From: Phytophthora sp. 'mugwort'
Lineage: Eukaryota > Oomycota > Peronosporomycetes > Peronosporales > Peronosporaceae
Direction: 5' to 3'
Length of the DNA stretch: 64,000 bases
Assembly (NCBI GenBank): GCA_033558025.1
Contig: JAUCEF010000001.1
Location: forward strand, 3,720,001-3,784,000
The position numbers were made by a program, and so were the translations under genes. Positions 1 through 19,488 of the stretch are shown here, piece after piece; position 1 is the stretch's first letter; each line of letters starts with the position of its first letter. The notes below the pieces were generated by a model. It made no database searches and was not told where the DNA came from. It saw only the letters and a list, made by a program, of their open reading frames with translations.

Positions 1-1233
1 TCAGAGGGCTTGGCCGACTGATCACGGTAGTTGAGGGCGAGGATACGATCCCGACTTGGCCCTTCGGCCAGGCTGTTGGAGATATAACGAAATGGTGGCA
101 TAGTAAGCAGAGATCGGCGTCTGTAGGTGTTGAGTGCCGTGACGTAGCTCCGGCTGACGCCGGCTAAGGACGGCGGGCGCGCTCGTATTAACCATGTTGA
201 AGTGAATAACGTCGTGTAGGATGATTGGCTGTTATTTTCGGCCAATCCGATGTCATTGTAAAAATACTTTTTACACAGCGTAAGAAGTCGAGATGGCCGA
301 ACCAACCGTTTTGGCGCGCTGACGATCGCTCCAGTATCCTCATTCCTGCTTCACGCGCGCATTAACCAGGAGTTCAGAGTTGAGCAGGATCTGCTATCGC
401 TGACACGGCGCGTGCATTGCTGTATTGTTTCTCCATTTATCTCGAAAGCCAGTGACGATATTGCACCAACGGACCAATTCATGTCGATTGCAACTTTTTC
501 GGGTACCAGCTGAGGCTTCGCAACACAACTTCTGGATGTTTAGAGACGCGCTTGTCTTGCCCTAGTGCATGTGCGAGTACGTTTGTGTATAGTAGTAGAG
601 AGGACTTACATGTCGAATTGATGGCGGGTTGGTGGTTCTGCTGATGCTTTTCAAACAAGCGTATGTCTGACTTGTATGAGGACAACCGTTTTTACTGAAG
701 GAAACGCCAGCCCAGTCTTATCTAAATTCGGTCTTCGCATCTTCATAGCTTCAACTATTAGTCGTCTTTTTCTTTTACGACCAGTTTTCATTCATTAGCA
801 GCAAGTTTAAAGATGCCGGGATCGAGTGATGATCGTTTATCTGGTTTACGGACCTCGCACTCGTGAGAGCTGACGAAACACAAACATTAAGACTACGATG
901 ATCTGACGAATCCCATAACTACAATATCTGCTGGTACTGTATCTGTACACGGTGAGGGGTTTCCTTCTAAAGCTGTTGTCAATGGCACTAGTGGTCTGAG
1001 CGTGAAGTCTTACACTTCAGTATCCTCTAACTCGCACTACTGGTCTCAGCGTGAAGTCTTAGTACTGTGTTAGTGCTTACTGCTATTACACAATGAGTGC
1101 TAAAAAGACTCCATGCTGAGACCGTCATTACATTAGTGATTGAATCGCCTCGCTGTTTGACACGTGCAACTTGCATTTCGTACTTAGTGGGTGACAACCG
1201 CTCATTATCGGATTTTGGATCGCTGTTTTGACA
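1..1233. other. Upstream region without a recognisable gene
   Basis: No coding stretch in either strand gives a recognisable protein here; the longest open frames are under 70 codons. The last part must hold the promoter of the ATPase gene that starts at 1234. The only structure I see is the short direct repeat annotated at 987-1061. Confidence 0.6.
987..1061. repeat. 26-bp direct repeat upstream of the ATPase gene
   Basis: Two copies of a 26-bp sequence lie at 987-1012 and 1036-1061 with two mismatches, sharing the core CAGCGTGAAGTCTTA or GAGCGTGAAGTCTTA. Part of the motif (TGCTGAGACC) recurs in opposite orientation near 1112. The repeat lies 170-250 bp before the start codon, so a regulatory role is possible but not shown. 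Confidence 0.55.
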
Positions 1234-4200
1234 ATGGGCGTGACGGTGGGCGTGGCGGACCCGGAGCTGACATCCGTGGCTTTATATACGCCGCTGCCAT
1301 GGCCTCTGCGGTTGGACTTGCTGCCATTCTTCTTTCTCTACATCACGGCTGTGTATCTGTACACACTGCGGCCCAAAGACGACGTAATCCCGTGGGTGTT
1401 CGGCGCCTTCAGCGTCTTCTGGCACGCACTGGCGCTGTTGAGCGCTGAATGGAGCGTGGACATGCGTTGCTGGATGAGTTGCGCGCGGCTGCCGGCTGTG
1501 GTGCAGGACGAGCGATTGATGATGCTGGCCAAGGTGGAGCCGGCACTCAGGATGTTGCCCAAGCAGCTCTGCGGGTGCCACCTAGCGCTCAAGTCAAAGG
1601 AGGAGAAGAACAAGACTAACGGCGCTGAGGTGCCGACGCTTTGGTTCTCGTTCCAGAACCTCAAATTCTGTCTGTATGAGGACGTGGAGACTATCAACCG
1701 GAGTGGCGAGACGCAGTTCCGGCGTCTGGATTTCCCGTCCAATGGCACACTCGAGTCGTATCTACAAAGTGAAGGTGTTAAGTCAATGGAAGAGTTCCAA
1801 CATGCCAGAGGAAAGTGGGGCAGGAACGACTTTGAGCTGCCCATGCCCAAGTTCGCGGAGCTGCTTAAGGAGCAGCTAGTGGCCCCGTTCTTCGTGTTCC
1901 AGTTCTTCTGCATGCTGCTCTGGTGTCTCGACGAGTACATGTACTACTCGCTGCTGACTCTGCTCATGCTCGTGATCTTCGAGTGCACTGTGGTCAAGCA
2001 GCGCCAGCAAAATATGGACACGCTGCTGCACATGCGGCGCGCCCCGCAGCCGTGTCTGGTCTTTCGTCTCGGTGAGTGGACTCAAGTTTCAAGCGACGAC
2101 CTGGTTCCGGGTGACATCTGCTCTGTTGGACACAAAGAGCGAGACACTGTTATCCCGTGCGACTTGCTGCTGCTTCGTGGAAACTGTGTGGTCAACGAGT
2201 CGATGCTCTCGGGTGAGTCTGTACCATTGCGCAAAGAGGCGATCGGGACTTCGATTGTGAATGATGCGGAGAAGCTGAAGAGCCTCGAGATTGACGACGG
2301 ATCTAGTATGAAGCACAAGAGACATGTGCTATACGGAGGCACCAAGGTTCTTCAGCACGCAACTCCAGCCTCAAAAGATATGCTGCGTGTCCGTGCTCCT
2401 CCTGATGGAGGTTGTGTTGGATTCGTGCTGAAAACGGGGTTTGGCACAACGCAAGGAAGCCTGATGCGCACCATTTTGTATTCTTCACAGCGCGTTACTG
2501 CAAACAACTCGGAGGCCATGCGGTTTATCGTTCTTCTTTTGAACTTTGCAGTGGCTGCGGCAGCGTTTGTGCTTGCGCAGGGAATTAACGACCCGACCCG
2601 CAACCAGTTTAAGCTCTTCCTTCACTGTGTTATGATCATCACATCAGTTGTCCCGCCAGAGCTCCCCATGGAGCTGTCATTGGCAGTCACGAACTCGCTG
2701 ATTGCGTTGACGAGAAGTAACATTTTTTGTACGGAGCCGTTTCGAATCCCTTTTGCTGGACGCATTGATGTTTGCTGCTTCGACAAGACTGGGACATTAA
2801 CCAGCGACGAGCTCAAGTTACATGGCGTAGCTGGTCTGGAAACCCATGTGGAGCCTGATAAGTACAGAGGGAAGCATCGCGGTGAGCTGGATATTATCGC
2901 ACCTGAGCAACTTCCTCTTGATACCGAGCTGGTACTTGCAGGATGCCAGTCGTTGGTCTTGCTCAATGGCCAGGTCGCGGGAGATCCGCTTGAAATGACG
3001 GCTGTTCGAAGCATTCACTGGTGTCTGACAAGCAATGAAGGCGGTGGGGAGGGATTACCAAGTGTTGAGCCATCCTTTTTCTCTGATCGTCGAGGCGAAA
3101 TCCAAGCTGTCGATATTCTTCACAGCTTCACCTTTTCCTCGGAGCTTAAGCGCATGACCACCATTGTGTGCGTGCGAAAAGCCGATAATGACGAGCAAGA
3201 CGAGCAGCGCGTGCTAACGAAAGGTGCACCCGAAGTACTCGAGTCGATCTTTACCAATAAGCCTTCGTACTATCGCCGTGTGTACCGTCATTATGCGTCG
3301 AAGGGATGCCGTGTCTTGGCATTGGGATTCCGCGTATTGCCTGGAGAGTGTTCCCCGGACGAGTTGCTGCGCAAGCCACGTGGTGAGCTGGAAAGTGGAT
3401 TGACGTTTGCAGGTTTTTTAATTCTTGATTGTCCGCTGAAAGATGACACGAAGCGAACTATTCGGGAGCTGGTTATTTCGAAGCACAAGGTTACTATGAT
3501 TACAGGAGATAACCCACTCACGGCATGCGATGTAGCCCGTCAAGTGGGGATCAATGCGGGGTATTCCAAGCAACCGTTGATCTTGACACCGAATACAGAG
3601 ACAGGAACCGTGGAGTGGAAGTCTATTGACGACGGATCACCTGATATTGACGAGGAAACTATCCCTTTCAACGTTGATGAAGTGAAAAAAATGCAGACTC
3701 AATACGATTTGTGTGTGACGGGGGAAGCCATGGCGACGCTCTACAAGCAGCAGGAGGACAAGTGCGACGACGACGGGGCTGCGTTGGAAGGCTTTCTTTT
3801 TGTCCTCGAGAAGATGTGCCTATGCATCACAGTGTTTGCTCGAATGTCGCCCCAGCAGAAGGAGCATCTCATCATGGCAATGAATCAGTGTGGTAAGACA
3901 ACAGCAATGTGTGGCGACGGCACTAACGATGTGGGTGCTTTAAAGCAAGCTCACATCGGCATCTCGATTGTGAACTCGTCGAGCTTCGAGAATACGCCTC
4001 ATGTGGTTGATTCCGGGAGAGGTGCTGGTAATACTGCAGGCCAGGACGGTCTTCGTCATCGACGGCAACTGGGGCGTCGGGAGCACTCGGCGGAAGAGCT
4101 GCAGCAATCCGTTTATGGCAGTGATGATGCTCAGATTGTGCGGTTGGGAGACGCTTCTATTGCATCACCGTTTACTTCAAAGAGCTCGAGTATCCGAGTG

Positions 4201-5049
4201 ATTAAGAAGTTGATCCGCCAGGGTCGATGCACACTGGTGACCACCATTCAGATGTACAAGATCCTAGGTATCAACTGTCTTATCACGGCGTATTATCTGA
4301 GTTCTCTCTTCGTTCACGGTGTGAAGAACGGTGATCAGCAGCTCACCATATCGGGGGTAAGTATTGTTTTTCTTCTTCTTCATGTTGTCTGAGTTAAAAG
4401 GCAGTTCTAATGTTGTATTATTATTTGTTGTATGCAGCTGTCGATCGCGATGTTCTTTTTCTTTTTGTCGCGAGCGAAACCTGCGCGCAAGCTCTCTCAC
4501 CAGCGTCCGCCGTCGGGGGTGTTCTGCATGTCTGTGATGGTGTCGATCTTTGGGCAATTTGTCATCCATTTGGCTTTTCTAGCTGCTGCTCTCCAAGTCG
4601 CCCAACCTTTCATCGAGCCGGGAGACCCAGCGATGCATCCGGATGGAAACTTCACCCCGAATGTGGTCAACAGTATCATGTTCCTCATGTCGTCGATCAT
4701 GCAAGTGAACACTTTCGTGGCTAACTACCGGGGACAACCGTTCATGGAAGGATTTTGGGATAATAAGCTGTTCTATCGCAGCGCGCTCTTTAACTACGCT
4801 GTGCTAGCCGTAGTTATTGCGGAGGTCTTCACACCGATCAACGCCCTACTCGAGTTGGTGGCAATGCCGAACGAAGAGGTACGGAGTATTTTAACTGGGT
4901 ACGTGATCGTATGAGGCAATGTTACTGACATCGTGATGGTTTCTGGGTTTCAGACGCAGCTCATAGTTGCAGCTCTTATGGCAGGTGACACAATCGTGAC
5001 GTTGGTGTTCGAGCATGCCGTCCAAATGATAGTTTTTGTATCGGCATGA
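1234..5049 (+). CDS. P5A-type cation-transporting ATPase (ATP13A1/SPF1 family)
   Basis: This encodes a P-type ATPase of the P5A group, which in yeast and animals sits in the endoplasmic reticulum membrane and extracts mis-targeted transmembrane helices. The first exon (1234-4356) is about 1040 codons. It holds the P5A membrane signature PPELPMELS near residue 474, the phosphorylation motif DKTGTLT with the aspartate near residue 517, LSGESVP of the actuator domain, KGAPE, TGDNPLTACDVARQVG and GDGTNDVGALKQ near residue 895. I place the start at ATG 1234; the frame is open a little further upstream only through a TTG. An intron at 4357-4437 (GTAAGT..CAG) leads to an exon carrying the last membrane helices, and a final short exon runs from 4954 to the TGA at 5047-5049. 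The donor of the last intron is uncertain: GTACGG near 4879 keeps the frame, GTACGT at 4899 does not. The stretch coding residues about 925-955, just before DASIASPFTSK, is unlike the family and could contain compensating frameshifts. Confidence 0.9.
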
Positions 5050-6269
5050 TCTAGACCAGCTGCAAGAATGATGAGAAATCCTGCAGAAAATTGGACTTTT
5101 AATTGTGCTAATTTGTTGAGGCATGGCTTTTGTATGAAAGGAAGAGCACAAAGCACTTTTTAGACAGTGTGTGGTAACCACAGCATAACATTGAGCTTGT
5201 AGCCACTGGCGACGCTCAGTTTGTGCTGAAGCCTGAAGGCTGTAGCAGGCATGCTATCTCTGAGCTGACATGCTGGACTGCTTCTGAGGAAGGCGGTTTG
5301 CAAAATGACTCATAGGAGGACTGAGTGCGAACTCGTTAGGAAGTTTACGTGGCACGCTTTCGTTGAGCTGCCAAGAATGGTTGACGAAGGCGTGCTTGGC
5401 GTAGCAACTGTTTCGGCAACAATGGGTCGCACCATTCGTGTAAATCTAAGGTATCATGTCGAATTGAGCCCATAGGCGTCACCCATTGAAAGGACAAAAC
5501 CTGTTTCTTGTACTTTACTGTACAAGGTACATATGATAATTCAATAGCCATATTGGTTATTAAATTATCATATTGTTCAATACTTAATATTTAATAATTA
5601 TAAATTGTTATTATTACAAAACATATACTTTCTCTGGTCAACCGTACTATGGCAATTTCAATATTATTAACATAGCAGACGAAGTAGATAGAGATTAGAG
5701 AGTAAGAGCCACATCATTTGGAAGCTCTCAAAGCAGTGTATGCTCTTACCATGCTAGCTTGCCCAAACGCGACCTACTTTGGAATGGTAAGAGAGCTATT
5801 CTGTGAAAGCTTCGAGGGGTCGCTAAGTTAGATATCGAATTCAGTCAGGTTCTAGCAATTATCCATTGCGCTTTTACACGAGATCTATTGTTAGTTTAGC
5901 AATTTGCTACTCACAGGAATAGCTTAAAAACGCGCAGAACGCCCGCAAATTAATGGCATACAATCGAGGTTTTATTCTCCGTTATTGCGATATCGCAGCA
6001 CATTACTAAGAGGGGAAGATTAAAATAATTCAATCATCGAGCAGTACGGAAGGTGACTATTTATGGTTGCAACTGCAACAAATTTGACCGAAAGCTGTGA
6101 TTGGCGTAAATGCCAGTAGCCTTCGGCAACTATACTTTCGTCTCCCGGATTGCTATCGGCGAGATGTCATGGCGCTCGTGAAACTTGCGAACGCGAGGTA
6201 GGCTGTAGCTATTGCCCCCCCCCCCCCCGCACGCAATAACCGTACCTAATACTTTCTGTAGTGTTAAAA
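5050..6269. other. Intergenic, partly AT-rich, no gene recognised
   Basis: Open frames here are short and unrecognisable. 5560-5660 is very AT-rich. An inverted repeat of 10 bp (CTCTTACCAT at 5743-5752, its complement at 5784-5793) could be the core of a small non-autonomous element. A run of 14 C residues lies at 6215-6228. Confidence 0.5.
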
Positions 6270-6274
6270 AGAGC

Positions 6275-6945
6275 ACTTATCTAATGCATGGTAGCTAACC
6301 CGTGCAAACGTGTTCTCTACAGCCGCGATCAGGTCGTCCGTGCCGAATGTGGGTGTCTTGTGGTGCAGCGGCTTCAACAACGAATTGAGGAACCCGAGGT
6401 CTAAAACGTTCATATCCTGCGAACATGACGGCTGCCTAATCATTTGGATATCCCAGCCGCCCTCCTGACCAGCCTCGATGTTGGCATCTTGTACACGTCA
6501 GCGTTGTCCTGCTGCACCTTATTGTGGTCGACTTTTTTCCTGCAAAATTCTAGTTTTTTATCCAGCAACATATTAGCAACATCAGTGTAAATGGCTTCAT
6601 TGACGCAACATCAAGCAACATCAAACTTCAACGCCGTCATTTCTCCCGAATTGCAAGGAACACCTTCTCACGCAGCGTCTGGGTATATAAAGCGCGTGTC
6701 ATGGAGACTTTATTTGCGATTTGAGCCATTTTTGCTCGTTTTTTTGGCGTTCGGCCACAGCCCCGCAGCCAAGAACATTACCTTTCCTATGTACCTTTTG
6801 TTTCGGCACGAGCGGTAGGGCAACTCTCTTCGTCTTTGGCTATGTAGTACTTGGCATTTGCCTTGTAGAGATTAAACCACTTCTCATCAAGATTTACGGT
6901 GTCATACATATGCTGTACACGAAACATTTTTTCTCCTAGCCAAAT
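6275..6945 (-). pseudogene. Mariner/Tc1-type transposase, catalytic half (broken)
   Basis: Read on the minus strand from 6927, the frame gives MYDTVNLDEKWFNLYKAN, which contains the first catalytic aspartate context (LDEKWF) of oomycete mariner transposases. After stops and frame changes the C-terminal part follows at about 6540-6280, with DIQMIRQPSCSQDMNVLDLG and ENTFARVSYHALD, matching the family's third-acid region (PxDxNxLDLGF). The reading frame is interrupted several times, so it cannot make a transposase. The matching N-terminal part lies about 1.4 kb away at 8340-8640, also on the minus strand, so the two are probably one element split by an insertion. Confidence 0.75.
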
Positions 6946-6949
6946 GGAA

Positions 6950-8339
6950 TAGCAAAAAGCAAATTATTGGTTCAACTGGATAGACTATCAATTATTGTAA
7001 ACAATTCAATAGTAGTGTGTATGTGGTGTAGCGGGATCGGTCAAAATATGATTAAGACCCGATCCGCTTACCAACTACGCCCAGACACCGACTAAAGGGG
7101 GGGGGTTCCCCGATGATCCGTGATCAGCTGAACTTGTTATCACCTTGTGTACCCGTCGGTGGGCTGGATCTGCTCTCTTGGGACTCCGAAGGATGCAGCG
7201 ATGAAAAGTCTTGAACGTCCTGGCGGGACCGGAGACGTGGAGTAGCGTGGAAGTCTTCGCTCTGCTGCCGTTATCGGTTCCGATCTGAGGTAGTTGACCT
7301 TCGATCGGGGGCCTGGACTTGATCCGAGGCCGAGGTTGCCGTGTGGCGTTGTTCCTTTCTTTCCCTTGAGTTGCTTGCCGCTTCCCTTAGCGGGATCTTG
7401 CGAGTTGAGAGTCGAAGCGGTCGTCGGCCAAGCACTGAATGCCGATCGGATGAGGTACGCGCTTGAGCTGAAGTTCGCTAGCGTGGGGGAGGGTCGGCCA
7501 ATATCCGATCCGATCCGATCCACTCACCACGACACTAGATCTGCTACCTTGGTCTGGTCGACACCTTGGGGGGCCAATGTAGTTCCCTTTCCACGGTATT
7601 TGAAAACAGCCTAAGTTGTCCAACGCAAATTCGAGTCTGATTGTTGCTTATCCTTTTCTGGTCCTATCTTCCCATCCTGATCCCTATCTCGTACTACCTG
7701 AATCTCCTGAACCTTGCCTTTTCAACCGCTCAACACGTACCGTCTTCACGCTTGCACATCCTCGATGATGATTGCTGATCAAATCTCGATCTGCCAGATC
7801 GCGGATGTCCGAACATGTATGTCGATCTGACAGATCGAGAATGTCGGAACCTGTATGCCAATCGGCAAATACCGATCGACCCGATCCGCTCAATCTCGAC
7901 CGCAAGACCGATCCGATCTGCCCGATCTCGGACAGCGGGGTGTAGGCCGACCTGTGGACGCCGGATCAGCCCGATCTGCCAACCCGCGGACCACAGATCC
8001 GCACGATCAGGGTCCGACCGAGGCCAAATGGGGTTAGATCCAGTCTGACCGATTCCGTCACCGCTCGCCAGTCCTGATCTCTTATACCCCCCTCGATCCG
8101 GGTTCCGAATATCCACTCGATCCTCGATCGGTCGGGTGATCACAGTGTAACAGATCTGTGTTGGGTGGTTGCCCGACCCTGGTCTCCTTCCTCGTCGTCG
8201 AAGCATCCACTTGCACCCCAGATTAAGTCGAACGTCGCCCCGCCTTTACCTCGTATCTTGATCCGGCTCGATTGCCCCCTCTTTTCAGAGCTGGGGCCGC
8301 CTTTCTCACCGATCTGGCCATTCCTTAGGGATCCGATAC
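6950..8339. other. GATC/GATCCG-rich segment inserted in a mariner element
   Basis: The segment is unusually rich in GATC, CGATC and GATCCG words, so frames on both strands read as biased arginine, aspartate, isoleucine and serine strings. It sits exactly where the mariner transposase is interrupted. Its left part holds TGTAGCGGGATCGG (7027) and its right part GTGTAACA (8147-8154), which resemble the ends of an oomycete LTR. A solo LTR or gypsy fragment is therefore possible, but I find no target duplication and no protein I recognise. Confidence 0.45.
7786..7857. repeat. 36-bp tandem repeat, two copies
   Basis: Copies at 7786-7821 and 7822-7857 differ at only a few positions. Each begins TCGATCTG and ends in TGTATG, and contains the palindrome-like CTGNCAGATCG. 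It lies inside the GATC-rich segment. Confidence 0.7.
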
Positions 8340-8640
8340 TTTTGGTTGACGCTTCTCCACATGTATCTATGTGGCGCTCGACGTGCGTCATCGATCACGA
8401 CAAACGTCGCACCTCGCGCACAGCAGACAGCGCCGGCTGGACACATGAGACCTTCCTGTGGATGACGCTGCGCTTCCAGTAGCGCAAAAGCGTCGTCTTG
8501 GAGATGCAGGTTGCAGCGGCAATTGAGCGCAAGCTCTGTCGCCAGCAGAAAGGGACATCACGAACCCTCTATACCACTTCGTCATCGGTGAGGCGGTGGG
8601 ACGGTGACGGGCGCTTCTGGCGGCCTCCCATCATCGCAGC
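8340..8640 (-). pseudogene. Mariner/Tc1-type transposase, N-terminal DNA-binding half (broken)
   Basis: On the minus strand one frame reads MMGGRQKRPSPSHRLTDDE, and after a frame change SLRSIAAATCISKTTLLRYW, a helix-turn-helix of the kind that opens mariner transposases, followed by THVERHIDT. The catalytic half continues at 6945 after the GATC-rich insert. It is frameshifted and not functional. Confidence 0.6.
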
Positions 8641-8949
8641 ACTATTGTGGCGGTGCAACCCGATGCCCGGTGCGGCCGTGACAATGCTGCCCCTAGGAAG
8701 GCAGCCCCGACTGACCAGTGAGCGAGGTGCAGGGCGACGGCCACCTTGATACGTGGCGAGAGGTTCTGCGGACTGGGGCGGCGGGGCATGCTGAGGCTGG
8801 CTGTCGTGTCTTGAGACGCTTGCGGTGAATAGAACTGTGAGAAGTGTGTCCGTGGTAACTCGGGTAGAAGTGATTAGCGACGGTGAAAAAACGCAAGCGA
8901 CGACTCTATCATGATTTCAAGAAGTGTAACGTTTGCGGAGCATGCTGTG

Positions 8950-10945
8950 ATCAAAAAGTCGAACAACCACGGGTGAACGTGTTATTGACATCCTGGACGG
9001 TGCGAATGCTAAAGAAATAGCGGAAGTACCAGGTACAGACTTCGAACCCCACACCCTACCCGACTGGACCACACAAAGAACCCACACAAAGCGACCACGA
9101 TGGCTCAACCCACTCTGTACCAACCCGATGTTCAAGTACACTAGGGAGAGACGGCAACAAACAGTTGATGGTGCGTCCGGTACGCAAGAGGTGCGGTGTG
9201 GTACGGTACGAAGGCGAATGTCCCAGTACTCAGCGTGGAAGTTCAACTTGGACGACTTTGAGAGCGAGTTCGAGTCCCTCTACTTTTTCAACGCCGAAGA
9301 AGACGACGGCCAGCGTTGCCGTGACATACGACCAAATTATGCGAAGCAAGTACAAAAACAAGTGTTGCGTACGATAGAAGCGGAAATGAAGTCGCTGGGA
9401 GCCCACTTCACCTGGAAGTTGGTAGATATGCCCTCCGGCAAGAAGGCTGTGGGGTGCAAGTGGGTATTTCGGATCAAGCGGAAACATCGTGAAGTTCAGG
9501 CTTATGGCTAAATGGTACAAGCAGTGTCCAGGTATCAACTACACCGAGATGTTTGCCCCAGTCGCTCGGAAGGAGTCGATAAACGCTTCATTGGCGGTGC
9601 AGCGGAAGAAGGTCTGGAGGCTGAAAATGTGGACGTGGATACGGGTTTCCTGTATGGCGATGTCAAAGAGGACATCTATATGGACCAGCCGGACGGTTTT
9701 GAAGATCAATTCAACCTCACCCGGAAGCGTTGCTTGAGAAAGCGCTTTGCGGCATGAAACAGCCGGTGTGTCAATAGAACAACAAGGTGATTTGACACCT
9801 GGAAGGCCATGGTTTCAAGCGCTCTGATGCAGATCCGTGGGTGTATGTGCGAAAGATGAGTACACAATCGTGGTTATTTATGTGGATTGAGCTACTTTTG
9901 CTAATACTTTTTATAATAAAAAGGTGAATTTAATAATAAAATAATTCATAACGATTTTTATTTAGATAAAAATTCGCTACGAATTATTTTTGTTATGAAT
10001 TATTATTATTATTATATTTAATTGGCAGAACGAAACACGACATCGAGAAGGTCAAACAAGCGCTGAAATCCGAGTTTAGCATTAAGGAAATGGGAGAGCT
10101 CAAGTATTGCCTCGACATTGAGATCCGCCCCAGACGTGAGTACAAAATCATCATGATGAACCAGCGCGCGCACATCAAGCGACTTCGGAGAAGTTTGGCG
10201 TGCAAAAGGATACGCATACGCCGGCTGACAGCAACTCGAGACTGGTCGAGGTATCGGACTAGGATGTGTGTGTGTCAAAGTACCCGGATCACGAGCTGGT
10301 GGATGCACTGATGTACGTGGCAACTTGCACACGGCCAGGCATTTTCACACGCAGTGGGTTAAGGGGTTAAGTGGCCAAGTTTTACGAGCGCCACAACAAG
10401 AGCCACTGGGCGGCGCCGAATCGCAACTTGAAGTATCTGTAGACGTCCAAAGAGTTTGTAATTGTGTTTAACTGTGGGGTCAAGGGAGAGCTTGTGTGCT
10501 TTGCGGACGCAAACTGGGTTGGCGACCTTGACACGCGATGCTCGACTACTGGCTACGTATTTTTTCTAACGGGCAGCGCAGTTTCGTGGAAGTCCAAGCG
10601 CAAAACCCACTGTGGCTACCTCAAGTACTGCAGCAAAGTACATGAGTCTCTACCGTGCGACTCAAGAAGCGGTGTGGATGCGACTACTGCTTAACAATAT
10701 GGGCTACACGGACCAAGCTGCTACAACAAGATGATCAAGGGTGCACTGGCCAGGACCCAGTGTATCTCACACGCATGAAGCATATCGACATCAAGTTCCA
10801 CTTTCTGCGTGAGAAGATTGAGTGCGCGGTTATCACTTTGGAGTACAAGCCAACCGATGAGGTGGTCGCTGATGGCATCACAAAGGCGCTAGCGCGTGAC
10901 AAGCATCGCAAGTTCGTCGTAGTACTCTGCATGGGAGCATGAGGA
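8950..10945 (+). pseudogene. Decayed Ty1/copia retrotransposon polymerase
   Basis: Pieces of a copia polyprotein appear in order on the plus strand in shifting frames. The reverse transcriptase start is WKLVDMPSGKKAVGCKWVFR (about 9414-9473), then LDVDTGFLYGDVKEDIYMDQ-like sequence near 9625-9690 (here with N for L), then MGELKYCLDIEIRP at 10090. RNase H follows with FADANWVGDLDTRCSTTGY at 10500-10560 and VADGITKALARDKHRKF near 10870-10915. Frameshifts and stops separate the blocks, and an AT-rich palindromic insert interrupts them at about 9885-10020. No LTRs were recognised on either side. The element is dead. Confidence 0.85.
9885..10020. repeat. AT-rich palindromic insert inside the copia remnant
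   Basis: AATAATTCATAAC at 9940-9952 is the exact reverse complement of 9992-10004, and between them ATTTTTAT and ATAAAAAT form an inner stem. The composition is nearly pure A/T, unlike the flanking copia sequence, and the insert breaks the copia frame. A small MITE-like element is the simplest reading. Confidence 0.6.
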
Positions 10946-11923: not shown

Positions 11924-11949
11924 GCGCCGTTGGTCTAATGGTTAGGATT
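11924..11949 (+). pseudogene. tRNA-Gly(CCC), 5' fragment cut by the LINE
   Basis: These are the first 26 nucleotides of a CCC-type gene (starts GCGCCGT), ending at GGATT where the LINE begins. Bases 11934-11949 form the 5' copy of the target duplication. The rest of the gene is at 19427-19488. Confidence 0.95.
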
Positions 11950-12352
11950 AGTTTGCAATTTGCCGGCTACCCCACAAGTGCACATAGACAGACCCATACC
12001 TGCTAATGCGCTTTCAAGCTTCGGTCCTTCCAGTCCCGTGTTGTCGTTTTTCCACCTCAGCCTATCTGTCGTGCTGTCGCCTCACCTGACTACCGGACCT
12101 TAAGACCCCGCCCCGCGCCGCGACACCACCACCACGCTAAGCCGTCGTGCTGCTGCCGCCGAAGAACTAAGTCGTCGCGACTCCCAATCGAGCCGCTCCC
12201 CTGAAGCTGTTGCCGAGTTTGCGCCTGTGGCCCTAGGAGGTCAGAGGAGTGCGGCCTAGCCCTACCGTAAAGGGGGGAACGTGACAGCTGCGAGAGAGCA
12301 GCTGGAAGAAGAAACGCCCGAACTGGTCCGCCAGCCTTCGCAGCCCATCATC

Positions 12353-14311
12353 ATGGCGGCTCCTCGTCGTGACCAGACTTGGCATGCTGAGTGGCGAAAC
12401 AAGGCCCCACAGGTCGAGTTCTCGTTGCCCACCGATGACGCACTCGCGTCAGCGGAAAAGGCTATGTTGGATCCCGAGCGCAACGCTGATGACAAGAAAG
12501 CAGCTGCTCTACGTGGAGTTCCCCAGCTCGTCTCGAGTGAGTTGATCTACTCCATGTGGATTCCTGCGCGAGACCTGACCGCCACGTTCTCTGATACGGA
12601 GATCATGACCTCGCTCGGATCGGATACGCAACCGGCCATCTGGTCGGCCAACGTCAGCCATCTGCGCGATTTCAAGACCATCCGGAACGCTGGCATCAGC
12701 TTTGTATGCACTGATCAAGCTATCGCATCCAAGTTGGGTGGCCAGACGCTGTCGATCTGTGACCGAAACTATCGGGTTCAACCGTACTCCAAGTACTCCA
12801 GCTGGTACTATGTCGACTTGCAGCACCTGCCTGACGAGGTCGATGACAGCGAGATCTACGACTGGTTCGCCGCACATGGGACACCACCGGTGTTCATCTG
12901 CCCTAGTCGTACGATTCGCGGTCTGAAGTCACGCAGCCGCCGAGTGTACTTCAACTACAAGTCCCCGCCCGAGTCGCTGATGCTTACGCCAACGACGCCG
13001 TTGCGAGAAATCAAGTTCGGTGACCATGGATACGCGGTGGTCAATCACCGCATCCGTGCGTTCAACCACGGCACGCCGCCCTTCCTGAAGGCGATGCACG
13101 AGAAACGCAAGGCTCACCCATCAGCATCTAAGTCGGTCGACCATGCGGCACATCAGGCTTCCTCGAAGCCTGCTGTTGCCACGAGCGTCGAAGCCAATGG
13201 CACGCCTATGGAAACGTCGGACGCCGAGTACGAGCCATCCGAGGCTAATGGCTCAGAAGTGAGTGACTCGGAAGCCAGTTCAGGCAGCGCTATGGAAGGT
13301 GTTGAAGGAGAAACTGTCGGAGACGGGATCACAGTCCAGCCCAATTCTATCTGGCCGTCGGATGAAGAACCTCCAAATTATCCCACTGGCTCGATCAAGC
13401 GAACGGACCGGGAGCCGGCGCGTATCTTGCGCGCCAAGCAACTTGTATTTGGCAAGATGTCCACTCCCACAGACAAGGCAAAGGAACTACCCCCGTCCCA
13501 GACTGGCTATCCAGTACTGGCATCCACCAACCAGTATGAGTGGCTGAGTGAGGGAGATGGTGGCAATGTCCCACCTGATCAGGATATGACTCTCTGGGAC
13601 AGTACTCAGATCCCGCCCTCCCCGGTTGCCTCGTATGTCAAGCTGTCCAAGCCTGCCGAAAAGATACTCAACAGCGCTGCGATCAAGTACCCTGCAGAGA
13701 CGATCACCCTCAATGACCTCTGCGACGTCATCGAATCGTATCTGACGGAGTTCTCGAACACCTCAGATGCCGATAGCAGCTTGTACGGGATCCAAGCCCA
13801 ACCTAGCGTCCATCGCTTTTTATTAGACACCTCGGCTCCCGGTAACTATCAGCATCTTCGCAGCAAGACGTTTGGCCACGCAGTACTCCGAATGATCTCC
13901 ACGAAGCTAGACTCCTCGGCGAAGGATTACTCGCTCAAGAACAAGTTGGCCGAGCTCTTCCCGGACGCCGACGACCTAAGCCCAGAAATCGTGCTGCAGA
14001 GCCTTTGCTCTACCCCAAACGATTTCTGGCTCCAAACGCGACTGGCCGAGTTTGATCTTGCGTTGCAAGTGATTGCTCCAAGCATCTATATGGATCCGGT
14101 CAAGGTCTGCGCTCTAATCCAAGTAGAAGCTACTACGCTGCCCCATCCGATGTGGCACCTCTGGGACGATCGCACCCTAGGGGTACTGGTAACCTCGCCG
14201 TTGGCAACTCGACTCCTTGATGGCCCGTTGCCGGACGACTTACGCCAATGCATCGTTGATCTCCAACAAGCGGCTTCGTCAGTAGCCAACTCGGGTAGCC
14301 CTTCTGTCTAA
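12353..14311 (+). CDS. LINE ORF1 protein
   Basis: This is an open frame of 652 codons from the first ATG (12353) to TAA; the frame is open upstream to 12281 but without an ATG. Residues about 135-220 (YYVDLQHLPDEVDDSEIYDW, then a stretch with SRSRRVYFNY) look like an RNA-recognition fold, as in ORF1 proteins of several LINE groups. That is suggested by pattern only. The middle is acidic and serine-rich. I see no CCHC zinc knuckle. ORF1 proteins normally coat the element RNA. The frame is intact, unlike ORF2. Confidence 0.75.
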   Translation: MAAPRRDQTWHAEWRNKAPQVEFSLPTDDALASAEKAMLDPERNADDKKAAALRGVPQLVSSELIYSMWIPARDLTATFSDTEIMTSLGSDTQPAIWSANVSHLRDFKTIRNAGISFVCTDQAIASKLGGQTLSICDRNYRVQPYSKYSSWYYVDLQHLPDEVDDSEIYDWFAAHGTPPVFICPSRTIRGLKSRSRRVYFNYKSPPESLMLTPTTPLREIKFGDHGYAVVNHRIRAFNHGTPPFLKAMHEKRKAHPSASKSVDHAAHQASSKPAVATSVEANGTPMETSDAEYEPSEANGSEVSDSEASSGSAMEGVEGETVGDGITVQPNSIWPSDEEPPNYPTGSIKRTDREPARILRAKQLVFGKMSTPTDKAKELPPSQTGYPVLASTNQYEWLSEGDGGNVPPDQDMTLWDSTQIPPSPVASYVKLSKPAEKILNSAAIKYPAETITLNDLCDVIESYLTEFSNTSDADSSLYGIQAQPSVHRFLLDTSAPGNYQHLRSKTFGHAVLRMISTKLDSSAKDYSLKNKLAELFPDADDLSPEIVLQSLCSTPNDFWLQTRLAEFDLALQVIAPSIYMDPVKVCALIQVEATTLPHPMWHLWDDRTLGVLVTSPLATRLLDGPLPDDLRQCIVDLQQAASSVANSGSPSV

Positions 14312-14354
14312 TGAGAATTGGGCCCTGAGAGGGTTCTCGCTGAACGCTAACGGC

Positions 14355-17300
14355 ATGAACCGGACCTCAAGGAGCTCGCTGCAGTACTTCTCTAAGACCT
14401 TTCACATGATCGGTCTTCAGGAGACGTGCTTCACCGGGCCCTTCAACTACCAGCGCTTGAAACAGATCTGGAGGCAAACCTCGCGGTTTAATTCCAGCTT
14501 TTGGTCGCAAGAACATATGACTACATACACAGGGCACGCTGGTGTGGGCTTACTACTCACGCCGACATGCCCTGTTCAAGATATCCAAGACGTTACCCTC
14601 CGTCATGTTAGCTCGGCTGATATGATGGATCGGTACTTACTACTACGCGGCACTCTGGACTTGAAAGAGACGTACATTCATGTGGTGTATGCCCCCGTTA
14701 AAGGCCAGAAGCGGCCAACTTTCTTTAAAAACCTTATAAGAGACTTCGACGATGATGTGCTGCACATTGTCATGGGCGACTTCAACACGGTGATGTCAAG
14801 CCAACTGGACCAAGCCAACCACACCGACCGAAATCGATCGCGGGGACGAACCGAGCTGCTGGACTGGATGCAAGCTATCAACGTTGTGGATGCATGGCGC
14901 CTGGAACATCCGACGCTCGTCGAGTTCATCAGCCCCAACTCCAGCTCAAGGTTAGACTACGTGATGCTAAGCTCCCAGCTCTTCCACTCGGCCATGCAGG
15001 GCATTCTGCACGACTTTCGCAATCGCTCCAATATGGGTGACCACTGCGGCATCGACTTTCGACTCGGATCTGCTGTCTTTCGGCCGGCTAAGAGACCCCC
15101 CTGGCGCTGCCCAGAATGGATCATCCAGCTTCCTGAAGCGCAGCAGTATCTCCAAGAATCGCTGATCAAGTTGGCAGACATGCTCCATGCACCAACGGAC
15201 TCCCACTACAACCCGGGCTGCCTACTCGACGAGCACAAGCGTCGCGACAACATCTTCCTGCACGAGTTATTTGAATCCCGGAAGAATGCTCGCCAGCGCG
15301 AATTTGAGGAACTGCACCTGGAAATCAATGATCTGCAGCACCGCCAAGCGACGGAGCCTACAGATGATCAACGCCGGCGGCTGACTGAAAAGAGGGCACT
15401 ACTGGAGGTCAAGATGAAGGTGAAAAAGTTCTACGCATCGAAGAAGAAGTTTGCCTCCGACCTCCATGATTCTGAACGAGGTACCAAGTACTTCTTCCGA
15501 CCGCCTCAGATCCTGCACAACACTCCGATTCCTGTCAATTCGCCGGAGGAGTTGGAAGTCATGTGCCAGGAGTTCAGCCAGTTTTGGTCCGGGATCTATC
15601 GTTCACCTTCAAGGGAGTTCCATCATGACAAGCCGAAATGGGATCGCATCAAGCTGGCCCAGATCCTTGAACACACGACTAAGCATCTGACGCCGAAGCG
15701 AGCTGCCTATCTTGACAGTCCACTCACAGCAAATGACTTCTACTGGGCTATCAAGCATATGTCGTCGGGGAAGGCACCAGGACCCGATGGGTTACCCGTG
15801 GCCTACTACCTAACTGATGTGCCACTTTGGAGCCGTATCCTGGAGATTGTCTACGCAGCTCAACTGGAGAAAGGCAGGATGTCCAAGTTCCAGCGTCGCG
15901 GCCAAGTCTGCTTGCTATACAAGAAGGGAGACCGTAAAGAGCCTGGAAACTACAGAACTGTGCTAGACAGTCTCCTATTCTCTGACCAGTATGGCTTCGT
16001 GCCTGGGCGCGATATTCGTCATGCTCACCTGCGACTTCAAGCACTCATGAAAGTGTATGAAGACGATGACGCGGTGGCTGGTGCTATCTTGATTGATTTT
16101 GCCAAGGCCTTCGACAGCGTGGTGTGGGATGCCTTTGACATGATCCTCGAGCACTTCCGCTTCGGCGAAGTGTTTCGTCGCTGGGTACGCGTGATGTTTC
16201 CTGGGACTTTGGTGGCGCTACTATTCAACGGTAGCCTACTTTCACCCTTTGAATTAAGGAGAGGCGTGCGGCAAGGAGACCCTCTCTCCCCGGGTCTGTT
16301 CGTGCTTTACGCGGAACCTTTGCTGAACTTGATTCGCGCCAAGATGAAGGATGCTGGACTTCGGTGTGGAGACTCTTCGGTAGTCCATACAGTTATCAGC
16401 TTTGCTGATGACTGCACTGGACTACTGAGGGACCTGCGGGATACTCAGCGTCTACTGGACTTGGTGGATCTCTTCTGTGAGGCATCGGGCATGGAGCTGA
16501 ACAAGAACAAGACCGTGGTGCTGCCGTTCCACCCCTGGAACAGTGAAACCGACAGCATCCGTGAGGAACTACAGCAATTGGGACTAAAGGTTGTTGAGAA
16601 CAACGACTCGGCCAAACTGCTTGGTATATACTACGGTCCCAAGCTCACAGACGCAGCACGGCTACAGCACATATTGGCGGACATGCAGACAAGGTGTTCA
16701 CTGTGGAAGTATCGGGCACGCACTCTGCGAGGACAAGTGGTTATCCTACAACAGATCATCTTGCCTGTTCTCTGGTACACGGCCAGTGTCTGCTACATAC
16801 CTGAAACTGGTTTCCAAGACCAAGTCCAGGACATGATAGTACGGTTCATGACCCAGTCTTCTACTTCGAACATCGTGCCCCGAGCTTGGTGGACGTTGCC
16901 CATGCACATGGGAGGCCTCGGTTTAACGCCTGTGAAAACGATGATCGAGGAACTCCAACTACACATGCTCTGCAAGCTGCTCATGGCCGTACGCCAGTCA
17001 CCGGATGATGTACCCTCATGGGCCGCCCCAGTCATTGCGCTGTTTGACTCCGTGATGAAACCTTGGGGACGCGACTTTGACATCCTGTACGCGCCGGTCT
17101 GGAACAGCCCTCATCATGTGGTGTCTCGACGGCTAAGACGATGGAGACCGCTTGGTTTGTATTGGCACCATGTTTTCTTCCTTTGGAACACCAAACTGCG
17201 CCCCAAGATCACTCGCAACATGACCAAGTTTGACAAGTTGACAATACCGCTGCTGGACAATGTGGATATCACGACTGCAACCAAGACGCCCAAGACCCTG

Positions 17301-18472
17301 CGAGCCGCAAACCTGGGAATTGTCCAAGACCTTATTCGCTTAAAGGTTTATCGGATATCTGACTTGTTTGAGCTTAGTGGATACCCGCCTCAAGCCGCCA
17401 AGCTATCCCAAGTCATCCGTGAGCATGGCCAGCCTAGGCGTGCTAACAGCGTGGGCTTCTGCGGATCTTTCTTAACTAAGATTGACTCGCAGTTACGACC
17501 GTTGGCCAACATGCCCATTGGACCCCGCCCCAAGCCACACTCCGGCTGCGCACTCCATACTTGGAGCTTCAGTGGCTATGAAGTCGCTGATCTCACGGTG
17601 TCGTTAATACGCAAGCTCCTGGTTCAGTACAAGGTACCCGGCCTGCCAACGACTGCACTTGGCCTTGAACGAGCGCCTCCCGGAAATGTATGGGGCAGGG
17701 ACCTAAAGATGAACAAGCACGTACTACCAGTGAACGCGGACTTGCTGTACAGACTTCAGCACAACGCACTTTGGGTGGGCTTTAGGCTGCAGCATGTGCA
17801 AGGCGCTATGACTCGCTGCCATCCATGGGTGTGGAGTCATTGAAACCGTCGTCCATCTCTTTTGGTATTGTGACTTTGCGGCAACCGTATGGGCGGAATG
17901 GCTTGAGGTGTTCCAACAGTGGTTTGAGTCTCCCATTGAGTGGGCGACTGTGGTCTACTTCGCGGACATCATGCCTACGCCCCGAGCCAAAAAGGACTTT
18001 GGTTACAGCCTCTTTGCGATCTTCCACATAGTGAGAGTTGATACTTCGCTGCCTATGGACGCACCGCAATGACATCCGCTTCCACGAGTCTGAACCAAGT
18101 CTCATCGGCGTCAAGGCTCGGGTGCACGCCCTGATTGACCTTCATGTTGCTGCCTTATGGCAGGCAACCCAGGCGCAAGCAATAAGACAGTCCACGCAGG
18201 TGAGTAGGCAACTACACACCTTATTGCGAGGACTGCCTGTGTCGGCACCCTTCGATGACAATGGCCCAAGCGACCACGAGGCGGAAGCCCGTCAGCGGGA
18301 CTCCTTACTCGCGGACATGTTGAACCACGACAGGGAAGAGACGTCCGGAGCGTTGGCGCCCTTCACGACTGCAGATCCAAGCGATCGCGCGGTGGAAACC
18401 CGTCAGCGGGGCTCCTTTCCCGCGGCCATGCTGAACCGTAGCCGGGAAGAGACGCCTGTGGCCCGAAGGTAA
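14355..18472 (+). pseudogene. LINE ORF2: endonuclease and reverse transcriptase, with frameshifts
   Basis: The main frame runs 14355-17843 (1162 codons). Endonuclease motifs are IGLQET, VYAPV, MGDFNTV, SRLDYVML and GDHCGIDF within the first 225 residues. Reverse transcriptase motifs follow: GKAPGPDGLP, CLLYKKGDRKEPGNYR, DQYGFVPGRDI, ILIDFAKAFDSV, RRGVRQGDPLSPGLF and the catalytic FADD near residue 683. Between GNYR and DQYGF about 25 residues normally present seem to be missing. At about 17820 the frame shifts; the next frame reads VIETVVHLFWYC, the C-terminal CCHC region, and a second shift near 18035 leads to LRCLWTHRNDIRFHE, ending at 18472. The first ATG lies inside the endonuclease fold: the same frame upstream, open from about 14284, reads NWALRGFSLNANGM. 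Initiation by frameshift or reinitiation is therefore likely in the parent element. Confidence 0.88.
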
Positions 18473-19426
18473 GGCCACAAGCTCAAGGCTTCATCCTGAT
18501 GTCTTACAATCCGCCGCCGGCGTGCTCGGCCATTACTGGCTTCAGTCTCCACCACTTTCACGCCCATACGCCAAGTTCCCGGCTCCATTTGCCGATCGCT
18601 TAGCGGGCGTTGCCTTATGTCTGCTGTACCCGAAGGCGGTGTGGATTTTTGAACCCAGGCGGGGCCCCACGTTAGCGGACAGGCGGGCGAAGAACGCGAC
18701 ACGCTACAGACGCTTACGCGTGTTATGGCATGCACGACATCACTAGACTACTCCTTGGATCGAGGTCTAGAGCGGCGCCACACTCCCGAGCCGCGCGTAC
18801 TACCAGGCCTACAAGCCCATGAGACGACGACTGGGAGGCTTTGCCCCTCTAGACCACGACCCGCATCTCTCCTATTGAAGTGCCCGGTCAAGCAGTCTCA
18901 AGAACTACCGGGTCTAACCGTGCTTCCAGGCCTACAGCCCATGAGACGGCGCCCAGTAGCCCCCAAGACCACCAGTCCAGTCACAAGACCAGATATCCCA
19001 ACCTTCGCGGCCAAACCCCAACCATCGTCCGAAAGGTCTGGTCGGCCCGGGGATTGAACCCTGGCCGCTTCCGTCCGACACTGGATGCTTAACCAGCTGA
19101 GCTATCTGAGCTCACTAGAAGTAGGTGGCTCACCACCACCTGGTTCATCGGGTTATACTTGGTTTTTGTATAGACTCCATCGGAAAGGTCCTGCCAATGT
19201 CCAACTCGGCCCAGAGACGTCTCCGGACGTCCACCAGTTTCCTCCTGGACACTAAAATGGGTCCTTCAGGGTACCCACTTTCGAGAAAATGGACCTTTTT
19301 TGGGCACCAATTGGATACTTCGTACCCAATTTTTGGGTCCACATGACCCAAATCGATCCCAAATAGCAAGTAGGGTAGCTAAGTAGGTTGCTTACTAGCC
19401 TTAAAGTGTAATGTATTTTTTGTTAA
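18473..19426 (+). other. LINE 3' region
   Basis: No coding frame is recognised. A motif CCAGGCCTACARGCCCATGAG occurs twice (near 18803 and 18928, the second one base shorter) as a diverged direct repeat. A tRNA-like sequence on the minus strand lies at 19037-19112. The last 150 bp contain several GGGTCC/GGGTAC words and end in a T-rich tract. Confidence 0.6.
19037..19112 (-). pseudogene. tRNA-like sequence in the LINE 3' region
   Basis: Read on the minus strand it has TAGCTCAGCTGGTTAAGC, a good D arm and A box, and CAGGGTTCAATCC, a T arm close to the B-box consensus, followed by GCCGACC. The 5' acceptor strand pairs at only about four of seven positions and the anticodon arm is irregular. 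It is probably a captured or decayed tRNA; a role as recognition structure for the element's RNA is speculative. Confidence 0.4.
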
Positions 19427-19488
19427 TCTAATGGTTAGGATTCATCCCTCCCACGGATGAGGTCGGGGTTCGATTCCCCGACGGCGCA
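19427..19488 (+). pseudogene. tRNA-Gly(CCC), 3' part after the LINE
   Basis: It begins with the 3' copy of the 16-bp target duplication and continues through anticodon loop CTCCCAC, T arm and discriminator. It lacks the first ten nucleotides, so the acceptor stem is gone and replaced by the LINE end (GTTAA). B box intact, gene broken. Confidence 0.95.

What the first reader, a model, noticed from the sequence alone, without database searches (positions are those of the whole stretch)
11924..19488. LINE inserted inside a tRNA-Gly gene with a 16-bp target duplication
The element starts after tRNA nucleotide 26 and is followed by a perfect repeat of nucleotides 11-26. Together with the APE-type endonuclease this points to a retrotransposon specialised for tRNA-Gly genes, using the array as a safe multicopy target. 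Tx1-clade families with RNA-gene targets exist in animals; one aimed at tRNA-Gly in an oomycete would be new to me.
Basis: partly seen in the sequence, partly recalled or inferred. Interest (0 to 1): 0.9.

Follow-up and report, generated by a model that had tools for sequence, protein, structure and literature searches.

The report
Jumping gene inserting inside tRNA genes
A LINE-type jumping gene in a Phytophthora-like water mould lands inside tRNA genes of many kinds, in either direction, far more often than chance, although most of its copies sit elsewhere; the tRNA-seeking relatives known to us land beside tRNA genes or keep to one tRNA type.

Summary
In detail: a 7.48-kb LINE (11950-19426) splits a tRNA-Gly(CCC) gene after nucleotide 26, flanked by a perfect 16-bp duplication of nucleotides 11-26. 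The claimed tRNA-Gly specificity is wrong. Of 60 left flanks read in the host genome, 12 (11 events) are tRNA genes, of at least seven isotypes and in both orientations; only this one is Gly, and 48 are not tRNA gene bodies. Still, 11 of 59 events against 0.1-0.5 expected is a strong excess (P 2e-12 or less), and hits fall in gene bodies rather than array spacers (6 of 8 loci). The eight resolved duplications in tRNA genes lie between positions -3 and 45, at no fixed site.

Non-tRNA copies share a loose endonuclease motif, YGTWYSC|TCT; it is weaker at tRNA sites and cannot account for the excess. tRNA hits are commoner in copies close to the window copy and absent (0 of 35) from one 3'-end variant.

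Best reading: an L1-like APE LINE with a loose motif plus a second mode drawn to Pol III-occupied tRNA genes; the tether is inferred. TRE5, TRE3 and NLTR elements insert outside tRNA genes. An antisense tRNA-like A/B-box segment in the 3' UTR is an untested candidate link.

The parts
11924..11949 (+). 5' part of the split tRNA-Gly(CCC) gene, nucleotides 1-26
   Evidence: sequence; joined flanks give a complete tRNA
11934..11949 (+). first copy of the 16-bp target-site duplication (tRNA nucleotides 11-26)
11950..19426 (+). LINE, about 7.48 kb, 5' end AGTTTGCAATTTGCC, 3' end TTTTTTGTTA(A)
   Evidence: both ends recur genome-wide
12281..14311 (+). ORF1 (676 aa in the mechanical list; no Pfam family); resembles by eye the N-terminal half of P0002 from Globisporangium splendens
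14355..17843 (+). ORF2 (1,162 aa from the first ATG of the mechanical list; reading probably begins further upstream), endonuclease plus RT, lacking 21 RT residues and ending early beside P0001
14673..15044 (+). APE-type endonuclease match (ORF2 residues 107-230)
   Evidence: (below cut-off)
15966..16559 (+). reverse transcriptase match RVT_1 (ORF2 residues 538-735)
19039..19111 (-). antisense tRNA-like segment in the 3' UTR with A box (19093-19104) and B box (19050-19060)
   Evidence: box pair in 1 of 3,000 resamples; both boxes exact in 27 of 30 copies; covariance match weak and not better than unrelated families
19427..19442 (+). second copy of the 16-bp target-site duplication
19443..19488 (+). 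3' part of the split tRNA-Gly gene

Best explanation
An L1-like, APE-endonuclease LINE of a Phytophthora-like oomycete inserts by target-primed reverse transcription in two modes. In the ordinary mode its endonuclease nicks dispersed DNA at a loose motif, YGTWYSC|TCT. In a second mode it is drawn to tRNA genes of any isotype and inserts inside the gene, on its A-box side, in either orientation and with less need of the motif. The simplest cause of the second mode is recruitment of the element's particle to tRNA genes occupied by the Pol III machinery, as proposed in print for TRE5-A of Dictyostelium. Shown here: insertions, duplications, isotype breadth, both orientations, excess over chance, motif, and its weakness at tRNA sites. 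Inferred: target-primed reverse transcription (from the duplications and the protein domains), the recruitment step and its partner.
For: 12 of 60 left flanks (11 of 59 events) in tRNA genes of at least seven isotypes, P 2e-12 or less for 1,860 to 9,329 tRNA genes. Eight resolved duplications in tRNA genes at positions -3 to 45, four sense and four antisense. Gene bodies take 6 of 8 hits in or near tRNA genes among 30 right-end loci with long flanks, though bodies are about 13% of an array unit (P 1e-4). Motif at non-tRNA sites: 17 of 31 held-out sites over the null 95% level, against 3 of 12 tRNA sites. Motif weight of tRNA genes 1.50 v 1.16 and 1.02 elsewhere, raising the expectation only to 0.41-0.70 of 59.
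Against: 48 of 60 left flanks are not tRNA gene bodies. The motif contrast is modest: tRNA sites score above null (one-sided P 0.013) and below the others only at P 0.03; 14 of 31 held-out and 10 of 17 leave-one-out non-tRNA sites also miss the 95% level. No tRNA-specific change was seen in the endonuclease. No contact with any Pol III factor was tested. No second element family was surveyed as a control for general openness of tRNA genes; the only internal control is the 0 of 35 five-T right ends.
Confidence: 0.55

Rival explanations
1. One reading: a retrotransposon specialised for tRNA-Gly genes at one site.
For: The window copy alone.
Against: 1 of 60 left flanks is tRNA-Gly; 11 others are other tRNAs and 48 are not tRNA gene bodies; positions differ.
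Confidence: 0.01
2. Direct recognition: the endonuclease itself reads tRNA gene sequence through a second or relaxed motif (for example D-arm/A-box letters), with no host tether.
For: tRNA sites keep part of the motif near the nick (C or G at -1 in 7 of 8, T or C at +1 in 7 of 8) and score slightly above null; TSDs cluster on the A-box side.
Against: Different positions, isotypes and both orientations with no shared site; average motif weight of seven tRNA genes only 1.3-1.5 times background.
Confidence: 0.2
3. Openness: tRNA genes are nucleosome-poor and highly transcribed (R-loops, nicks), so the element enters them without any specific contact.
For: No fixed site or orientation; part of the copies only.
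Against: Hits avoid the T-arm/B-box side in the eight resolved cases (P 0.007 for a boundary chosen after looking); 0 of 35 five-T right ends are in tRNA genes although the host genome is the same, but those may be older.
Confidence: 0.2
4. Survivorship: insertion is random and only insertions into redundant tRNA arrays survive.
For: tRNA genes lie in tandem arrays here and in P. infestans (PMC9584435, passages); most tRNA hits are in copies close to the window copy.
Against: Then spacers, about 87% of an array unit, should take most array hits; among 30 right-end loci with long flanks it was 6 bodies to 2 nearby (small sample).
Confidence: 0.04

Closest known systems
TRE5, TRE3, NLTR-A and NLTR-B non-LTR elements of dictyostelids (passages of PMC5006619, PMC5911963, PMC5391098, PMC4559204)
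   Same: LINEs (listed as L1 type; APE domain stated for TRE5-A) that go to tRNA genes of any isotype; [quoted passage not shown]
   Different: They insert outside the gene (40-54 bp upstream, 40-150 bp downstream, 2-6 bp upstream, 39-64 bp upstream in the review's table); here insertion is inside the gene and most copies are elsewhere
LIN15_SM and LIN25_SM of planaria (one passage of PMC4640811)
   Same: Non-LTR elements with tRNA genes as target (tRNA-Arg; tRNA-Glu)
   Different: One isotype each; discussed there with the NeSL-related restriction-like-endonuclease elements (their endonuclease type is my inference); exact site not seen
Dada DNA transposons (passages of PMC3706591)
   Same: Insert inside tRNA genes, three Perkinsus families at the letters TAGCTC
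   Different: DDE transposase, each family keeps to its own gene and site
Utopia (R2I) and Keno elements in U2 genes; Dewa in the spacer of tRNA-Leu (passages of PMC4640811, PMC3706591)
   Same: LINEs aimed at multicopy RNA genes; Utopia lives in Phytophthora
   Different: Fixed site in one gene or spacer; Utopia has a restriction-like endonuclease

Membership tests
APE-type LINE (non-LTR retrotransposon) | reverse transcriptase of LINE type | tested here: met
   RVT_1 E 5e-23; L1 ORF2p 112 bits
APE-type LINE (non-LTR retrotransposon) | APE-type endonuclease N-terminal to the RT | tested here: met
   PF14529 below its cut-off, but L1 endonuclease structures match residues 88-212 at E 7e-10 and the closest full-length relative has PF03372
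APE-type LINE (non-LTR retrotransposon) | target-site duplications, no long terminal repeats | tested here: met
   25 duplications resolved of 60 left flanks (one further site dropped as a segmental duplicate), 24 of them 11-17 bp
Tx1 clade | RT grouping with Tx1-clade references | not testable with these tools
   no Tx1 reference was at hand; tree of 31 rows places it in an oomycete clade
tRNA-Gly-specific LINE | copies share one site in tRNA-Gly | tested here: not met
   1 of 60 left flanks
TRE-like Pol III-guided LINE | preference for tRNA genes irrespective of isotype | tested here: met
   at least seven isotypes, 11 of 59 events
TRE-like Pol III-guided LINE | insertion at a set distance outside the gene | tested here: not met
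   the eight resolved tRNA duplications overlap the gene; one left end about 70 bp downstream of a tRNA-Thr
TRE-like Pol III-guided LINE | contact of an element protein with a Pol III factor | not testable with these tools
   needs binding experiments

The most novel reading that the evidence does not exclude
The LINE finds tRNA genes through its own Pol III-like module: the antisense tRNA-like A/B-box segment in its 3' UTR is bound by TFIIIC, which gathers element copies and their particles with tRNA genes (or yields an antisense Pol III RNA used in targeting), and insertion then happens inside the gene on the A-box side. It would be a retrotransposon that carries a copy of its target's promoter as an address label.
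Probability: 0.1. Interest if true: 0.85.

Novelty: new variant of a known kind. Interest (0 to 1): 0.6.

Why it matters
A paper on such elements contrasts two ways of targeting multicopy RNA genes: direct reading of a DNA site inside the gene, or guidance by host proteins to a place near the gene (PMC3706591, passages). This family fits neither neatly: inside the gene, but with no fixed site, isotype or orientation, beside an ordinary motif-driven mode. It is a natural two-mode element in which a tether and an endonuclease preference might be told apart, in a genus whose tRNA genes form large tandem arrays (about eight thousand tRNA genes in P. infestans; PMC9584435, passages).

Tried and rejected
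tRNA-Gly specificity: rejected. A tRNA-specific endonuclease variant: I compared the endonuclease region of 21 copies (window plus 20 fetched); two rows (C7:3162286, C7:8333772) did not hold that region at the expected place and say nothing, and several others had long gaps (one with only 228 comparable bases); no fixed difference between tRNA and non-tRNA copies was seen. Motif as the whole explanation: rejected. Survivorship in arrays: disfavoured on the body/spacer ratio, from 8 loci only. Strong conservation of the 3' tRNA-like segment: only about twofold (17 of 1,866 cells differ, against 166 of 8,498 and 209 of 8,170 beside it), and single 72-bp windows nearby come close (1.1% and 1.4%). 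Proof by covariance model that the segment is tRNA-derived: failed; the tRNA model fits end to end with 11.5 bits (gathering 29), but three unrelated families scored higher in the same call, and nothing was seen there at E<=1 in the whole element. A search of viral contigs for relatives with readable insertion sites found none. Literature: the nine searches (listings; passages of eight papers read) showed no LINE reported inside tRNA genes of several isotypes; the library holds open-licence papers only, so this is no proof of absence.

Full report
Observation. The window holds a 7.48-kb LINE at 11950-19426 inside a tRNA-Gly(CCC) gene. The 16-bp duplication is perfect, and the joined flanks give a complete tRNA-Gly with the duplication at positions 11..26. 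ORF2 carries RT and APE-type endonuclease matches, and it is damaged: 21 residues short inside the RT region and ending early beside P0001 (by eye; 460 v 481 residues). The host is most likely a Phytophthora: the best hit of a RadA-like gene of the window is Phytophthora nicotianae (86% over the whole query), other Phytophthora follow, and downy mildews come somewhat lower. The genome itself is unnamed.

Genome survey. End patterns place 58 left ends (up to 2 mismatches) and 90 right ends (up to 3 mismatches), with 0 matches of the reversed controls; more diverged copies are missed. I read all 58 left flanks plus two that one search had found and the pattern missed (C7:1099590, C10:2622286), so 60, and all 90 right flanks. 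Twelve left flanks are tRNA gene sequence: Gly, Asn, Leu, Arg (two), Phe, Asp (two), Thr (two, one duplicated event), and two whose isotype I could not fix (C7:1099590, sense, on about 25 nt only; C16:674652, antisense, about 54 nt with a B box). Seven isotypes are confirmed by ARAGORN on joined flanks; the rest are by eye. Of 90 right flanks 13 were labelled tRNA, among them four of one tRNA-Thr cluster, one tRNA-Ala without a matching left flank (C3:3351971) and one doubtful (C5:8044462). One left end lies about 70 bp downstream of a tRNA-Thr gene (C13:1002646). The other 48 left flanks are not tRNA gene bodies.

Duplications. Matching left and right flanks resolved 25 duplications after one segmental duplicate was dropped; 34 left flanks stayed unresolved. 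Twenty-four are 11-17 bp (18 perfect, 6 with one mismatch); the one in tRNA-Thr is 38 bp. In tRNA coordinates the eight resolved sites run from -3 to 45, four sense and four antisense: Gly 11-26, Asn 13-23, Leu -2 to 11, Arg 9-21 and 32-45, Phe -3 to 8, Asp 4-18, Thr 8-45. If midpoints were uniform, all eight in the first 39 of 73 positions would have P 0.007, for a boundary chosen after looking.

Excess. The number of tRNA genes lies between about 1,860 (strict B box net of control) and 9,329 (loose first-look candidates, only 63 scored); a wider B box gives 6,724, or 5,420 net of control. Expected tRNA-body hits among 59 events: 0.10-0.48; seen: 11; P from 5e-20 to 2e-12. Survivorship in arrays does not explain this well: bodies are about 13% of an array unit (tRNA spacing about 556-558 bp in the Asp and Phe arrays), yet they take 6 of the 8 hits in or near tRNA genes among the 30 right-end loci with 1.5-kb flanks (P 1e-4).

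Motif. Seventeen resolved non-tRNA sites share YGTWYSC|TCT around the first nick (G at -6 in 15, T at -5 in 13, C at -1 in 13). A matrix from them, applied to 31 held-out non-tRNA sites, puts 17 over the null 95% level, where 1.6 are expected (one-sided P 3e-10); leave-one-out, 7 of the 17 pass. Of 12 tRNA sites 3 pass; as a group they are weaker than the held-out sites (P 0.03) yet above null (P 0.013). Over seven tRNA genes the mean motif weight is 1.50, against 1.16 in flanks and 1.02 in window DNA, which lifts the expectation only to 0.41-0.70 of 59. So something besides this motif brings the element to tRNA genes.

Age and branch. Among the 40 copies with enough 5' sequence (chosen for likeness to the window copy), those within 5 differences of the window copy are in tRNA genes in 8 of 13 events, the rest in 3 of 26 (Fisher P 0.002). 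Distance to a tRNA-resident copy may bias this. By the T-run at the 3' end, 12 of 54 right ends with six or more T (variants included) and 0 of 35 with five T are in tRNA genes (P 0.003; 9 of 49 v 0 of 35 after collapsing duplicates, P 0.009; one of the 90 could not be classed). Either the preference was gained recently or old tRNA insertions are lost. Endonuclease sequences did not separate the two kinds.

3' segment. On the minus strand at 19039-19111 lies a tRNA-like stretch with A and B boxes in tRNA spacing. Such a pair arises in 1 of 3,000 first-order resamples of the element; both boxes are exact in 27 of 30 copies; the stretch differs from the window copy in 0.9% of cells, against 2.0-2.6% beside it. 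Against a tRNA origin: the covariance score is 11.5 bits and three unrelated families scored higher on the same stretch. [quoted passage not shown] That the segment acts in targeting is a guess.

Phylogeny. In a tree of 31 rows (window plus 30 of the 120 listed hits) the RT lies with a metagenome protein (68% identity over the RT stretch) and Globisporangium LINEs in a set of six (support 100/100), inside an oomycete clade of 15 rows, apart from the plant and reptile rows. The best solved relative is L1 ORF2p (112 bits), before R2 (56 bits). 'L1-like' is fair; Tx1 membership is untested.

Comparison. Dictyostelid LINEs TRE5, TRE3, NLTR-A and NLTR-B target tRNA genes but insert outside them (passages). 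Planarian LIN15_SM and LIN25_SM keep to one isotype each (one passage). Dada DNA transposons insert inside tRNA genes, each family at its own gene and site (passages). The window family works like the TREs in isotype breadth but differs in place, so I file it as a new variant and as a member of neither.

Verdict. The insertion is real, the tRNA-Gly specificity is not, and a broader preference for the inside of tRNA genes is well supported by numbers; its mechanism is inferred.

Noticed in passing
11514-38823: Tandem array of tRNA-Gly genes (29 ARAGORN calls, TCC and CCC types alternating for the most part in units of about 1.46 kb); the LINE sits in its first CCC gene.
   Followed up: partly
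19039-19111 (-): Antisense tRNA-like segment with A and B boxes in the LINE's 3' UTR, present in nearly all copies looked at.
   Followed up: partly
15900-16000 and 17843: ORF2 of this copy lacks 21 RT residues beside P0001 and ends early, so the copy itself is probably not active.
   Followed up: partly
18266-18454: Two direct repeats of about 78 bp, about 80% alike, inside the 3' part of the element (element positions 6317-6394 and 6428-6505).
   Followed up: no
host genome C6:4015586/4113297 and 4105822/4114003; C16:3488709/3456539; C12:1434693/1307130; C4:3171449/3187564: Left and right ends whose duplications match belong to copies on opposite strands 16-128 kb apart, as inversions by recombination between LINE copies (or assembly errors) would leave.
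   Followed up: partly
host genome C17:3722736-3761945: Cluster of four right ends and two left ends in tRNA-Thr genes with an unusually long 38-bp duplication; looks like one insertion multiplied with its array.
   Followed up: partly
host genome C7:1196320, C7:1234704, C7:1263025: Three right ends with identical flanks, probably a segmental duplication.
   Followed up: no
host genome C13:855277-1002667: Seven element ends within about 150 kb in and around a tRNA-Asp array.
   Followed up: no
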